From Isoetes taiwanensis (lineage: Eukaryota; Streptophyta; Lycopodiopsida; Isoetales; Isoetaceae): a DNA stretch of 64,000 nucleotides. Under the pieces are notes generated by a model. It was not told the DNA's origin, ran no database searches, and saw only the letters and a program-made list of their open reading frames with translations. Shown here in pieces: positions 16,521-35,522 of the stretch (its first letter is position 1; each line of letters begins with the position of its first letter). Both the position numbers and the translations under genes were made by a program. The stretch covers positions 40,227,841 to 40,291,840 of the forward strand of contig JAJEKV010000002.1 of the NCBI GenBank assembly GCA_021234155.1, given 5' to 3'.

Positions 16521-16729
16521 CTCTCTCTCTCTCTCTCTCTCTCTCTCTCTCTCTCTCTCTCTCTCTCTCTCTCTCTCTCTCTCTCTCTCTCTCTCTCTCT
16601 CTCTCTCTCTCTCTCTCTCTCTCTCTCTCTCTCTCTCTCTCTCTCTCTCTCTCTCTCTCTCTCTCTCTCTCTCTCTCTCTCTCTCTCTCTCTCTCTCTCT
16701 CTCTCTCTCTCTCTCTCTCTCTCTCTCTC
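16521..16729 (+). repeat. (CT)n microsatellite 1
   Basis: An uninterrupted CT dinucleotide run of about 209 bp. It separates the T-rich repeat on the left from the 5'-truncated LINE copy A on the right. Confidence 0.98.
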
Positions 16730-16755
16730 GGTCATCTTTGCTCGCTCCTCGGAGT

Positions 16756-17938
16756 GTATGCAGCGACATTTGGATGGGCTGGCCCGCTTTTGTGATGCAT
16801 CCGGGATGCAAGTAAATCTGGAAAAAACAAATGTTATGACAGTAGGGGCTTTTTAAGGTGGGTGACCTCTTTTAGATACAAGAACAATCCGGTAAGTATT
16901 TGTGATTCTTATAAATACTTAGGGCTGATTTTCCATAGAAACCACAGATGGAATGCGTGCATTGCCCAAAGAGTAGATGGGAGCCACAAGGCTCTTTATG
17001 CCATGCAGAGCTTATGCAGAGAGGCACATTTATGGTCATGGCAACTCAAAAGAAACCTGTTTGAATCGTTAGTACAGAGTGTGGCATTGTATGGAAGTGA
17101 GATTTGGGGACCTACTCTTCCACAAGGCTTATGGGATGATCTTGAACAGATTTTGAAGAAGTTCATAAGGCTCGAATTGGGGGTTAAATCACAAACTCCC
17201 TACCCAATGATGTTAGCAGAATGCGGCCTGCTTCCTCTAGAAGGAGAGGCCATGATACGGTGTATCCAATTTCTGAAAAAAGTGCTTCAAATGGATAACA
17301 CTAGGCTCCCATGCAAAGCTCTTAATGCTAGTAAGGAAAAAGGTTGGTTTCATGATGTGGTATGCTGGCTTGGCAGATGGGACATCCAATGGCAAGAGGC
17401 AATAATAGTAGATGGGGATTTAAGGCAATGGATTCGCGACAAGGTCCAAAGGAAAATGTGGTCCCAGCCTAAAACAAAGATGATCCTATACAGGCAACAC
17501 ATGAATCCAAGTCTGGCAGCGGCTACTTATCTAAAAGATAATATCTCGATAAAAAAAAGACATACACTTGGCAGGATTCGCCTTAGTTCGCACCACTTGG
17601 GTGTGGAAACAGGTAGATGGGGGCATATAGTTCCGAGATCAGAGAGATGGTGCAAAGTTTGTGGGGAAGAAGAAGTGGAAGATGAAACTCATACACTACT
17701 TAAATGTGGGGCTTACCATTTACTACGGGTCCAACATGGTATATTAGCTGATGATCTCCAAAGCTTTTTCCTATTGGAAGGAGAGAAAACTAGTGCCTAC
17801 TTGATAGAACTTTTACAATATAGAGGGATTTGTTTAAAAAGATTGAATAGTCTTCTTGATGAAGAAGACACATTTAGTGAGAGTGACGAGCAAGATGAGG
17901 ATTCTGAGACTCATCTGCTCTTTTATGATTGTACCTAA
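16756..17938 (+). pseudogene. LINE ORF2 C-terminal fragment (copy A)
   Basis: The first readable piece, MQRHLDGLARFCDASGMQV, matches the segment just after the YADD box in the other copies. Stops and a frame change follow up to about 16860. From there about 358 codons are open to the TAA at 17936-17938. The open part holds the region after the reverse-transcriptase active site (YKYLGLIF, LYGSEIWGP, LAECGLLPLEGEA) and a C-terminal zinc knuckle, CKVCG with H and C following as CCHC (residues around 270-290 of this frame). The catalytic RT motifs and the endonuclease are missing, so it cannot act alone. Confidence 0.88.
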
Positions 17939-17950
17939 AAAATTGGGTTT

Positions 17951-17980
17951 GTCTTTAGGCCTTTTAGGCCTCCCAAGGAC
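17951..17980 (+). other. LINE 3' hairpin, copy A
   Basis: Outer stem GTCTTT/AAGGAC (one G-T pair) encloses inner stem AGGCC/GGCCT with loop TTTTA. It stands about 15 bp before the CT tract. The inner stem differs from copies B-D by a paired change. Confidence 0.8.
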
Positions 17981-17995
17981 TCAATACACACTTCA

Positions 17996-18145
17996 CTCTC
18001 TCTCTCTCTCTCTCTCTCTCTCTCTCCCTCTCTCTCCCTCTCCCTCTCCCTCTCCCTCTCCCTCTCCCTCTCCCTCTCCCTCTCCCTCTCCCCTCTCTCC
18101 TCTCTCTCTCTCTCTCTCTCTCTCTCTCTCTCTCTCTCTCTCTCT
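17996..18145 (+). repeat. (CT)n / (CCCTCT)n microsatellite 2
   Basis: A CT run at each end surrounds a block of CCCTCT hexamers. It lies between LINE copies A and B and is the only CT tract in the array with this hexamer variant. Confidence 0.97.
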
Positions 18146-18151
18146 AGGGTA

Positions 18152-32445: not shown

Positions 32446-35197
32446 GATAGAGCCACAAAGGACCAATCAAAAGATTTGCAGCCACAAGGTATGCATCTTT
32501 TGAATATGTGTAGCGGCTTAGACTTAATTGTACTGAATGGTATCAGTAAATTTCCTCAATCAAAGAAATGTACATCTAAAGGCGTTATGGGAATTGGATT
32601 CAGTGTTGTTGATCTGGTTATGACAGGGATTCATATTGTGGATAGCATTAGTGACTTGAGTATCGATGATGGCATACCAACCTCTGATCACTTCCCAATT
32701 GTGGTGCATTTAAGACTTCAGGACCAGGGTGTTATAAACACACCTAACCCAAAAACACAAACTAGGATAAACATGGATCCACGTAAGATGAGTATCTTTA
32801 AGAAGATGTGTGAGCAAAATGCTAAGGAGCTTACATGGCCAGAGAACTTAGTAGAATTGGACACGATGCTTACCTCTATGTTACTTGAGGTGGCTCAGAA
32901 ATGCTTCATACCTCGTCGTGCATTGAAAGGATTGCTATGTAATGGGTGGTATGACACGGAATGTAAAAGTAAGAGGCTGGAATTTAAGACTGCAACACAG
33001 AAAGATGAAGGCAAGGTTCAGAAGGAATATCGACAATTAGTGAGAAGGAAAAAACGAGCATACTACCAAACCAAACAGGAAACACTGGTAAGTGAATTGT
33101 TATCACAGCCAAAGAAATTCTGGACAAGGTTGAAGGCCAGAAAACAACAGACTAGTCTTTTAGATGTGGATAGTTTATTACAACAACTGCATAAACTATA
33201 TCACGTAGCGGGATTGCATGAGGAAATGGACAGACAAGGTGATAATCTCACTTTTTCAGATGCAGATATATTTGAAGGGCTGGAATCACTTTCGTGTGGC
33301 AAGGCAGCTGATGCACTTGGGTTGATGGCAGAGATGATAAAATGGGCTGGTCCAGCTGTAACCAGTGTCATCACGAAAATGATGAATAGAGCGTTGATTG
33401 AAGGCTTCCCTCACACATGGCAAGTCAATAGAGTGGTACCAATCCATAAAGCAGGAGACATCAGCGACCCAAGCAACTATAGAATGATCATGGTAAGCAG
33501 TTTGTTTTCAAAATTATTTGCCAAGCTTATAGAGATAAAGTTAAGTGATTGGGCAGAGATACACAATGATAGAGCATCGGGACAAGCAGGTTTTAGACCT
33601 AACAGGTCTACACTAGACCACTTAATTACTATGAGAGCAATGACAGATGCTGTGAAGAAAACTAAAAAGCCGCTCTTTGCTTGCTTTGTGGATCTTACTA
33701 AAGCTTTCGATATGCTAAGAAGAGGGAACATTTGGGAATACATGGATCACATAGGGGTGCCACAGGAGCTCAGAAACGCAGTATCAGTACTATATGAGAA
33801 AGTGCTAGTAAGTCTATCTTTTCCGCTAAACAAATCCTGTAAAGCAGAGATAATTAGTAACATTGGGGTGAAGCAAGGATGCCCTTTATCCCCTACATTA
33901 TTTGGGATATATATAGACCAGTTAGAGATGTGGATGCAGAGACATAGTGGAGGGGGGACTACACTTGCAGGATACTTGCTTATTCTACTCTTATATGTAG
34001 ATGATATTGTTATCCTTGCTCAGAGTTACCACGATATGCAGAGGCACTTGGAGGCATTAGCCAATTTCTGTGATGCTACTAAAATGCAGGTGAATTTGAA
34101 TAAGACTAAAATTCTCATTTTTGGAAAACGAGTTCATAATTTCCATTTCCAATATAAGGGAGAAGAGGTGGAAATAGCAGACACATATAAATATTTAGGG
34201 CTTATAGTGGACCACAATTATGGGTGGAACAAGGTAGTTGGGCAGCGTACTGATGTTGGGATTAAGGCGCTATACGCAATGCAGCAGAAATGCAGAAAAG
34301 CAGGGACTGTAGACTGGAAACTGAAGAAAATGTTATATCAAAACCTCGTCAGGACAGTTGCGTTGTACGGATGTGAGGTTTGGGGGGCCGGGCTCTCCCA
34401 AGAAATATGGAAAAGAGTTGAGAAAATTCAAAAGAAATTTCTTCTGGCAGAACTAGGGGTTAAAATGCAAATCCCATATCATATGATGTTGGCTGAAACA
34501 GGGATGGAATGTTAGAAGCTGAAGCATTATTTCTGACGCTCAAATATGTGCAAAAGGTCCATGATATGGATGCTGATAGGCTATCGAGGCTTGCAATGAT
34601 ACATAGTAGTCTTAAGGGATGGTATAATGAAGTGCGTAAATGGTTGGGTAAGTGGGGAATGGTGCTAGAAGATATGCCATCAGAGGAGGATGAGCTAAGG
34701 GAATGGGTCTACGCACATATCAGAGAAAAATCCTGGCATAATGCAGGCACGAAAATGGCATTTTACAAAAAAGAAATTAATCCAGCACTTGGAAAAGCAC
34801 CGCATCTCTTGGGTAAGCTGTCTTACTTTAAAAGACATTTATTTGCAGACTAAGATTAAGTTCACATCACTTGGGAGTGGAGGTTGGTAGATGGGGGAAT
34901 CTCCCCCGAAACTTACGTACCTGTAAAACATGTGGAGCTGATGTACTGGAGGATGAGGCACACCTTATTCTTCGCTGTCCTACATATGAAAATTTAAGGA
35001 GACGGATGGGTATTCCTACCGGGATCTCTTTATATGAGTTCTTTGCGCTGCCAGCTGCAACTATCAGTGACTACTTGATAGAGGTGATGAAAGTGAGGGA
35101 CATGTCAATAAGAAACTATAAACACCTACTAGAATTATATGAGAAAGAGAGTAGTGGGACTAATGATGCCGTGATTGAGGGTACATTAGAGTTTTAA
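32446..35197 (+). pseudogene. LINE ORF2 remainder (end of endonuclease, RT, knuckle), copy E
   Basis: The same frame resumes after the TGA stop. It completes the endonuclease with SVVDLVMT and SDHFPI. The reverse transcriptase reads NYRMIMVSSLFSKL, GQAGFRPNRSTLDHL, FVDLTKAFDM, GVKQGCPLSPTLFG and YVDD, a conservative change from YADD that still keeps both aspartates. Frameshifts at about 34500-34510 and about 34845-34870 separate the last segments. The knuckle CKTCGADVLEDEAHLILRC is intact. The final stop is at 35195-35197. Confidence 0.92.
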
Positions 35198-35225
35198 TTA
35201 TATGCAAAAAAACTGACTTGTATAT

Positions 35226-35255
35226 CGTCTTCTAGGCCTGATGGTCTCATAGACG
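35226..35255 (+). other. LINE 3' hairpin, copy E
   Basis: Outer stem CGTCT/AGACG encloses inner stem AGGCC/GGTCT, in which the middle pair is G-T. This is the intermediate between the A-T pair of copies B-D and the G-C pair of copy A. Confidence 0.87.
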
Positions 35256-35278
35256 TGATCTATAAAACATTTCATTTC

Positions 35279-35369
35279 ATCTCTCTCTCTCTCTCTCTCT
35301 CTCTCTCTCTCTCTCTCTCTCTCTCTCTCTCTCTCTCTCTCTCTCTCTCTCTCTCTCTCTCTCTCTCTC
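35279..35369 (+). repeat. (CT)n microsatellite 6a
   Basis: About 91 bp of CT directly after LINE copy E. Confidence 0.98.
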
Positions 35370-35400
35370 GTTAGGCACATCGAATTTTTTTTATCTCTCG
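35369..35400 (+). repeat. Unique spacer duplicated on both sides of a CT tract, copy 1
   Basis: GTTAGGCACATCGAA followed by a T run and ATCTCTCG. It is repeated with a 3-nt difference at 35522-35556. Confidence 0.85.
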
Positions 35401-35522
35401 TCTCTCTCTCTCTCTCTCTCTCTCTCTCTCTCTCTCTCTCTCTCTCTCTCTCTCTCTCTCTCTCTCTCTCTCTCTCTCTCTCTCTCTCTCTCTCTCTCTC
35501 TCTCTCTCTCTCTCTCTCTCTC
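35396..35522 (+). repeat. (CT)n microsatellite 6b
   Basis: About 127 bp of CT with no LINE after it. It lies between the two copies of the GTTAGGCACAT spacer. Confidence 0.98.

What the first reader, a model, noticed from the sequence alone, without database searches (positions are those of the whole stretch)
16521..35522. Head-to-tail array of five diverged LINEs, each bounded by a (CT)n microsatellite
All five copies lie on the plus strand and every junction between them is a CT tract of about 90-210 bp. The copies differ strongly in protein sequence, in 5' truncation point and in their mutations, so simple tandem duplication is unlikely. The pattern fits a retrotransposon that inserts specifically into CT microsatellites and uses its CT-like 3' end to prime. 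Microsatellite-specific LINEs (such as the Kibi and Koshi elements of the Tx1 group in fish) are known in animals. I know of no described plant LINE with this habit.
Basis: partly seen in the sequence, partly recalled or inferred. Interest (0 to 1): 0.92.

Follow-up and report, generated by a model that had tools for sequence, protein, structure and literature searches.

The report
Plant LINEs that target CT microsatellites
A diverse family of jumping elements in a land plant repeatedly inserts, always in the same direction, into stretches of repeated CT letters, so that different family members end up lined up head to tail with CT repeats between them; such targeting was known in fish, but I found no report of it in plants.

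Summary
Five LINE copies lie head to tail on the plus strand, each with (CT)n on both sides. They are not duplicates: synonymous sites are saturated, and each copy's nearest relative among those sampled lies elsewhere in the genome. The 1.66-Gb host genome could be searched only in part. A 16-base hairpin from the 3' end occurs 762 times (reversed control: 1). In the first 30 of these sites a CT tract follows the 3' end in 17. In the 20 sites extended upstream, CT lies at the 5' boundary in 11, seven of them truncated copies; 8 have CT on both sides and 7 on neither. The 30 sites hold 46 CT tracts (one counted twice) and no GA tract, and LINE matches run 659 to 0 in one orientation. Arrays recur. 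Best explanation: an APE-endonuclease LINE with an L1-like ORF1 that is primed at (GA)n by its (CU)n RNA end. ORF1 starts 0-28 nt after the tract in seven copies, so the target may supply the 5' leader. Targeting is a strong preference, not absolute. Microsatellite-specific LINEs are known in fish, so this is a new variant of a known kind. Tx1 membership was not testable.

The parts
16521..16729 (+). (CT)n tract, left border of array; presumed remnant of the original target
   Evidence: TRF 100% CT; left flank shows no LINE match
16730..17995 (+). LINE copy A, 5' truncated inside RT, abuts CT directly
   Evidence: tblastx to C, B, D, E; ORF 16796-17938
17996..18145 (+). impure (CT)n/(CCCTCT)n tract between A and B
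18146..21491 (+). LINE copy B, 5' truncated at the start of ORF2; EN and RT
   Evidence: Pfam Exo_endo_phos, RVT_1; at least 3 breaks in ORF2
21492..21666 (+). (CT)n tract between B and C
21667..26213 (+). LINE copy C, full length, ORF1 ATG is the first base after CT; ORF1 region 21667-22886 (frame broken near its start), ORF2 from about 22911
26214..26330 (+). (CT)n tract between C and D
26331..30867 (+). LINE copy D, full length, ORF1 ATG is the first base after CT; most decayed
30868..30960 (+). (CT)n tract between D and E
30961..35279 (+). LINE copy E, ORF1 ATG 4 nt after CT, apparent internal deletion at the ORF1/ORF2 border
35280..35522 (+). two (CT)n tracts, right border of array
21446..21491 (+). 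3' end of copy B: double stem TGTCT..AGACC-TGAT-GGTCT..AGACA, then TTTCA, then CT (representative of five)
22449..22886 (+). ORF1 coiled-coil/RRM/C-terminal domain of copy C
   Evidence: profile of alignment A2 hits L1 ORF1p; AlphaFold pLDDT 80; Foldseek first seven hits human L1 ORF1p
12436..12568 (.). left copy of 133-bp direct repeat (5 mismatches) enclosing the outer insertion that holds the array
40018..40150 (.). right copy of the 133-bp direct repeat

Best explanation
These are members of a diverse clade of APE-endonuclease LINEs that insert by target-primed reverse transcription into CT/GA microsatellites. Inferred steps: the element's endonuclease nicks the (GA)n strand; the freed GA 3' end pairs with the (CU)n end of the element RNA, just after a conserved 3' double hairpin and YTTCA repeats, and primes cDNA synthesis. 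Because the target is strand-asymmetric, insertions point the same way. Because both edges of a new copy are again CT, each insertion leaves two targets, so unrelated families pile up head to tail. Full-length copies have almost no 5' UTR of their own (ORF1 begins 0-28 nt after the tract in seven), so the CT tract probably serves as leader and perhaps as promoter. Shown: anatomy, flanks, orientation, diversity, recurrence. Inferred: nick, priming, leader and promoter role.
For: Window: 5 of 5 copies have CT on both sides, all in the CT orientation. A and B are truncated in ORF2 yet abut CT, so CT is target and not element. Copies are not duplicates: dN 0.30-0.58, dS not estimable in 9 of 10 pairs. 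In a tree of 26 copies (9 of 35 dropped for short ORF2 match) the window copies scatter and each is nearest to a copy elsewhere; E is 95% identical to L025. Genome: the hairpin 16-mer has 762 hits, control 1. 3' CT in 17 of the first 30 sites; 46 CT tracts (one counted twice, since L031 and L032 overlap) against 0 GA; LINE HSPs 659 plus, 0 minus. 5' CT in 11 of 20 extended sites, 7 truncated and 4 taken as full length. Control DNA of 69,322 bases holds 1 CT and 0 GA tracts. Among the 100 listed sites, 7 neighbour pairs within 10.5 kb (limit set after seeing the list; 6 within 10 kb) against 0.48 expected, 7 of 7 on the same strand. CT tracts with LINE on both sides also at L043, L054, L055, L057, L058, L059 and L034. 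3' double hairpin in 5 of 5 window copies.
Against: 7 of 20 extended copies have no CT on either side, and 13 of 30 have no CT tract at the 3' end; six of those 13 sit by (CTT)n, (CCTC)n/(CCCT)n or mixed pyrimidine and seven by short CT or none. One hairpin (L019/L049) runs into another LINE with no CT between. The phase of the CT tract at the 5' junction is not firmly fixed: a hand-picked list gave T last in 18 of 20, but by rule it is 15 of 21 (LINE match within 30 nt, P 0.04), 16 of 26 (100 nt) and 20 of 33 (400 nt), and tracts not followed by LINE give 14 of 24. The 3' hairpin folds only modestly better than shuffles (z -0.7 to -2.9). The sample is the first 30 of 762 in contig order, chosen by one exact hairpin sequence. 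Nicking and promoter activity cannot be shown from sequence.
Confidence: 0.85

Rival explanations
1. CT is a tail made by the reverse transcriptase (like TAA repeats of the I element); insertion is otherwise unspecific and later copies simply land in the tails of earlier ones.
For: Variable YTTCA repeats before CT suggest template slippage; some copies have CT only at the 3' end, L050 and L054.
Against: 5' truncated copies abut CT at their 5' end, including ones with no LINE match upstream of the tract (copy A; L040, L051).
Confidence: 0.07
2. Arrays were assembled by recombination between CT tracts or by tandem duplication rather than by repeated insertion.
For: CT tracts are recombination and slippage prone (general knowledge); sites are clustered; the CT phase at the junctions is not firmly fixed.
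Against: The window copies are not sisters and are saturated at synonymous sites; the outer 133-bp direct repeats differ by only 3.8%, far less than the copies do; recombination would still need each source copy to be CT-flanked.
Confidence: 0.05
3. Insertion is random but copies survive best inside CT-rich heterochromatin (safe haven).
For: A PIF/Harbinger-like element also sits between CT tracts; 7 of 20 copies lie outside CT.
Against: Many junctions lie at or within a few bases of the tract edge and always in one orientation (0 GA tracts).
Confidence: 0.03

Closest known systems
Kibi and Koshi of the Tx1 group (fish)
   Same: PMC4640811 (passages) says that most reported target-specific families fall in the early-branched, Tx1 and R1 groups.
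   Different: Animal hosts; here a land plant, with arrays of many diverged families. The original paper (doi 10.1093/molbev/msg235) was not seen (timed out); no RT tree made.
Togen (related to NeSL, fish)
   Same: (TG)n microsatellite-specific LINE (PMC4640811, passage).
   Different: NeSL-type elements carry a restriction-like endonuclease (same paper's passages); here the endonuclease is APE-type.
Plant L1-clade LINEs (including a lineage with a 3' stem-loop)
   Same: ORF2 with APE endonuclease and RT; one plant lineage has a conserved 3' hairpin (PMC3747384, passages).
   Different: Almost all flowering-plant L1s end in poly(A) (same passages); here hairpin, YTTCA repeats, then CT. ORF1 looks like human L1 ORF1p.
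L1-Tx1 of the fern Ceratopteris
   Same: A repeat-annotation label for 23,635 copies, 0.56% of the assembly (PMC6890710, Table 2 passage).
   Different: Only a label; the held main text has no occurrence of the word 'microsatellite'. Identity with our clade untested.
HeT-A/TART telomeric arrays of Drosophila (recalled)
   Same: Works like: head-to-tail arrays in which the upstream neighbour supplies sequence ahead of the next copy.
   Different: Those sit at chromosome ends, not in microsatellites. Analogy only.

Membership tests
APE-endonuclease LINE (non-LTR retrotransposon) | AP-like endonuclease plus RT in ORF2 | tested here: met
   Exo_endo_phos and RVT_1
APE-endonuclease LINE (non-LTR retrotransposon) | no LTRs, variable 5' truncation | tested here: met
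   A and B truncated at different points, C-E full length; further truncation points in L040, L049, L055, L058
L1-type ORF1 protein | coiled coil, RRM and C-terminal domain like human L1 ORF1p | tested here: met
   profile hits 2ldy, 2ykp, 2yko at E about 3e-4; Foldseek first seven hits, TM 0.42-0.48; single-sequence phmmer missed it and Pfam gave no ORF1 family
Tx1 clade | RT groups with Tx1 in a reference phylogeny | not testable with these tools
   no eukaryotic reference RTs beyond PDB; best PDB hits were R2 (8e-23) then L1 (about 1e-13)
Tx1 clade | target-specific insertion | tested here: met
   a preference, not absolute
Plant L1 with poly(A) tail | 3' poly(A) | tested here: not met
   0 of 5 window copies; no poly(A) in the 115 nt printed after the hairpin at any of 30 sites
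Microsatellite-specific LINE | most copies flanked by the microsatellite on both sides | tested here: inconclusive
   5 of 5 in the window; 8 of 20 extended sites, 13 of 20 on at least one side

The most novel reading that the evidence does not exclude
The CT microsatellite is a functional part of the element: RNA of the form (CU)n-ORF1-ORF2-hairpin-(CU)n, with target repeat as leader and promoter at the 5' end and as primer site at the 3' end. Each tract in an array would then serve the copy upstream as its 3' end and the copy downstream as its promoter, so that arrays of unrelated families form a shared, self-renewing expression unit, and the target stands in for terminal repeats.
Probability: 0.35. 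Interest if true: 0.85.

Novelty: new variant of a known kind. Interest (0 to 1): 0.73.

Why it matters
If right, microsatellite targeting by LINEs, so far reported from animals as far as I could find, also evolved or persisted in a land-plant lineage. The clade has hundreds of hairpin-bearing copies and many diverged families; the flanks were examined at 30 sites. It gives a natural set of junctions for working out how an APE endonuclease reads a repeat, and it suggests a LINE that has handed its 5' leader, and possibly its promoter, to its target. It would also affect annotation, since CT tracts in the LINE-selected regions looked at mostly border LINE copies.

Tried and rejected
Tandem duplication: rejected. 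CT as the element's own 5' UTR: rejected for truncated copies. Chance CT tracts: rejected. Fixed cleavage phase: first seemed strong in a hand-picked list (18 of 20), weakened by a rule-based recount; kept only as a hint. Among matches that start within 5 nt of the tract it is 12 of 13, but that cut was made after looking. My confidence in the main explanation was lowered slightly for this, from 0.87 to 0.85, and the rivals' odds raised by the same amount.

Led nowhere: Rfam and tRNA scans (none); search for relatives in viral and prokaryotic contigs (none); structure of the endonuclease (pLDDT 55, too poor to lean on; one search gives only a general APE fold); MAFFT alignment of the hairpins for covariation (not structurally aligned, so no covariation statistic is claimed).

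The genome-wide count of hairpins followed by CT was asked many times and never answered, so the CT fraction rests on 30 sites. Paper searches and look-up failed or timed out; 68, 70, 73, 76, 77 were answered.
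Full report
What is there. The window is land-plant DNA: an ORF at 42996-43472 (minus strand) carries a LOB domain (E 9.7e-32; that LOB domains are a plant family is general knowledge). Between 16521 and 35522 lie six CT tracts (the last in two pieces) and, between them, five LINE copies on the plus strand. A lacks everything before the RT catalytic region; B begins at the start of ORF2; C, D and E run from ORF1 to the 3' end. 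ORF2 has an AP-type endonuclease and a reverse transcriptase. By my count every copy has breaks in ORF2 (at least A1, B3, C2, D6, E3), so none of the five is autonomous.

Not duplicates. Over all ten pairs, amino-acid identity is 43-61%. Codon positions 1/2/3 differ at 32-43%, 21-35% and 57-71%. NG86 dN is 0.30-0.58; dS could not be estimated in nine of ten pairs and was 4.1 in the tenth. The copies therefore diverged as functional lineages long before they met. In a tree of 26 copies (21 of 30 genome loci plus the five; nine loci dropped for less than 700 nt of ORF2 match) the window copies scatter. By p-distance each has its nearest relative elsewhere: E and L025 are 95% identical, C and L023 76%, and A, B and D are 33-43% away from anything in the sample.

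The locus is young compared with the copies. The array and a neighbouring DNA transposon lie inside a larger insertion bounded by a 133-bp direct repeat (12436-12568 and 40018-40150) with five mismatches. Read on the minus strand the insertion ends in a short poly(A), and its body is T-rich on the plus strand. I take the repeat for a long target-site duplication (inference). If so, all five LINEs entered within the time of about 4% divergence. Joining the two flanks of the array gives a stretch that aligns, with many gaps, to an internal paralogue at 39364-39611 (score 116, against at most 81.5 in 200 two-base-block shuffles), which looks like an empty site with a short CT run.

Ends. All five copies end in a double stem: outer GTCT/AGAC-like; inner AGACC/GGTCT in B, C and D, AGGCC/GGTCT in E, AGGCCT/AGGCCT in A. 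One or two YTTCA units follow, then CT. Folding is better than shuffles at z -0.7 to -2.9. I saw changes that keep pairs (for example T-A to C-G in the outer stem) but made no formal covariation count, since the alignments were not structural. Full-length copies start with ATG: C and D at the first base after CT, E after 4 nt; in genome loci L043, L047, L053 and L052 the first ATGGC comes after 5, 5, 24 and 28 nt. In these four, similarity to the query LINE proteins begins only 199 to about 810 nt further on, so their full length is inferred, and the ORF1 frames of L047 and L052 are broken within the first ten codons.

Genome-wide. The host genome (1,658,258,908 bases, 1110 contigs) could be searched only when the machine answered. 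The 16-mer TAGACCTGATGGTCTC occurs 762 times, its reversed control once. It matches copies B and C exactly and not A, D or E, so it samples part of the clade. I had the first 30 sites in contig order. A CT tract lies within 70 nt of the hairpin in 17 of 30. The other 13 are (CTT)n (L011, L022), (CCTC)n or (CCCT)n (L014, L035), mixed pyrimidine (L018, L036), and seven with short CT or none (L012, L015, L016, L019, L021, L026, L038).

Among the 20, CT lies at the 5' boundary in 11: truncated copies L039, L040, L049, L051, L055, L057, L058 (CT end to first protein match 19, 2, 27, 96, 0, 5 and 1 nt) and presumed full-length L043, L047, L052, L053. Both sides CT: 8 of 20 (L039, L040, L043, L047, L053, L055, L057, L058). 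At least one side: 13 of 20 (also L049, L050, L051, L052, L054). Neither: 7 of 20 (L041, L042, L044, L045, L046, L048, L056). The automatic rule (tract within 60 nt) gave 9 of 30 at the 5' end and 7 of 30 on both sides. It includes ten loci with only 1.5 kb upstream, counts L031, L035 and L054 (in L054 a 14-nt tract inside the LINE match, which I do not count), and misses the full-length copies and L051.

Over the 30 sites (L029-L058), CT tracts number 46 and GA tracts 0, and LINE HSPs are 659 plus and 0 minus. L031 and L032 overlap by about half, so at least one tract and some HSPs are counted twice. In 69,322 bases of control DNA (eight loci around other RT genes and the rest of the window) there are 1 CT and 0 GA tracts. 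Among the first 100 listed sites, 7 neighbour pairs lie within 10.5 kb (limit set after seeing the list; 6 within 10 kb) against 0.48 expected, all 7 on the same strand, and 11 of 11 within 30 kb. CT tracts with LINE matches on both sides recur at L034 and at L043, L054, L055, L057 and L058. L059 holds four LINE stretches in a row with three hairpin ends.

Phase. In a hand-picked list of 20 junctions the tract ended in T in 18. A rule-based recount does not bear this out fully: 15 of 21 when the LINE match starts within 30 nt (P 0.04 against even odds, 0.10 against 55%), 16 of 26 within 100 nt, 20 of 33 within 400 nt, and 14 of 24 for tracts not followed by LINE. With the match within 5 nt it is 12 of 13, a cut made after looking. 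A fixed top-strand cut at CT^CT is a hint, not a result.

Proteins. The ORF1 profile of C, D and E has L1 ORF1p entries as its best four PDB hits (2ldy, 2ykp, 2yko, 2w7a; E 2.6e-4 to 4.3e-3), and the predicted fold (pLDDT 80) has human L1 ORF1p as its first seven matches (E 8e-6 to 2e-4, TM only 0.42-0.48). A single-sequence search saw nothing, and Pfam names no family for ORF1. The RT's best PDB hits are R2 (8e-23) and then human L1 (about 1e-13), which does not decide its clade.

Mechanism. Shown: target, orientation, structure, diversity, recurrence. Inferred: the endonuclease nicks the GA strand, the GA 3' end pairs with a (CU)n RNA end positioned by the hairpin, and the CT tract upstream serves as leader and perhaps promoter. 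Each insertion leaves two CT edges, which explains arrays of unrelated families.

Literature. PMC4640811 (passages) lists microsatellites among LINE targets and names the early-branched, Tx1 and R1 groups, with Togen (TG)n-specific in fish. PMC3747384 (passages) says flowering-plant L1s nearly all end in poly(A) and that one lineage has a 3' hairpin. PMC6890710 (passages) lists L1-Tx1 copies in a fern. The listings of searches showed no plant LINE with microsatellite targeting; they cover open-access papers only.

Host. The assembly total and contig count (1.66 Gb; 1110) resemble those of the quillwort Isoetes taiwanensis (1.66 Gb; 204 scaffolds plus 909 contigs; PMC8566536, passages). This is a guess, not a test. 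That paper's held main text has no occurrence of non-LTR, Tx1 or microsatellite.

Limits. One genome; 30 of 762 sites for 3' ends and 20 for 5' ends, all from low-numbered contigs; no empty alleles; no RT tree.

Noticed in passing
35523-38919: PIF/Harbinger-like DNA transposon (DDE_Tnp_4 at 36694-37377 plus; weak Myb/SANT-like ORF at 37965-38465 minus, below cut-off) with inverted ends TCGTTAGGCACATG / CATGTGGCCAACGA (12 of 14) that abut CT tracts on both sides, as if it too had inserted in the CT tract.
   Followed up: partly
12436-12568 and 40018-40150: 133-bp direct repeat with 5 mismatches bounding a 27.4-kb insertion; on the minus strand it ends in a short poly(A); looks like a non-coding retroposon with a very long target-site duplication.
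   Followed up: partly
12569-16520: Strongly T-rich non-coding DNA (T 43%, A 17%) with internal repeats (13950-14226 / 15122-15391 and 14494-15110 / 15414-16017, 71-75% identical).
   Followed up: partly
35370-35400: 31-bp piece resembling the left end of the DNA transposon, with CT on both sides, just before the real end at 35522.
   Followed up: no
55629-56015: Fragment of a further, more G+C-rich LINE RT with no CT tract nearby.
   Followed up: no
L011, L022 (L041, L052): Two closely related copies end in (CTT)n instead of (CT)n, so a sub-lineage may have shifted its target or tail.
   Followed up: no
L019 (L049): A hairpin end that runs straight into another LINE with no CT tract between, while CT lies at its 5' end.
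   Followed up: no
L059 3899-4054 and window 17996-18145: Two array tracts contain (CCCTCT)n besides (CT)n, so the spacers also change repeat unit.
   Followed up: no
48966-49150 and 53801-54078: Related tandem repeats with a palindromic CTCGACTCGCGAGTCGAG core at two places about 5 kb apart.
   Followed up: no
4234-4268 and 54467-54501: Identical 35-bp stretch in inverted orientation, 50 kb apart.
   Followed up: no
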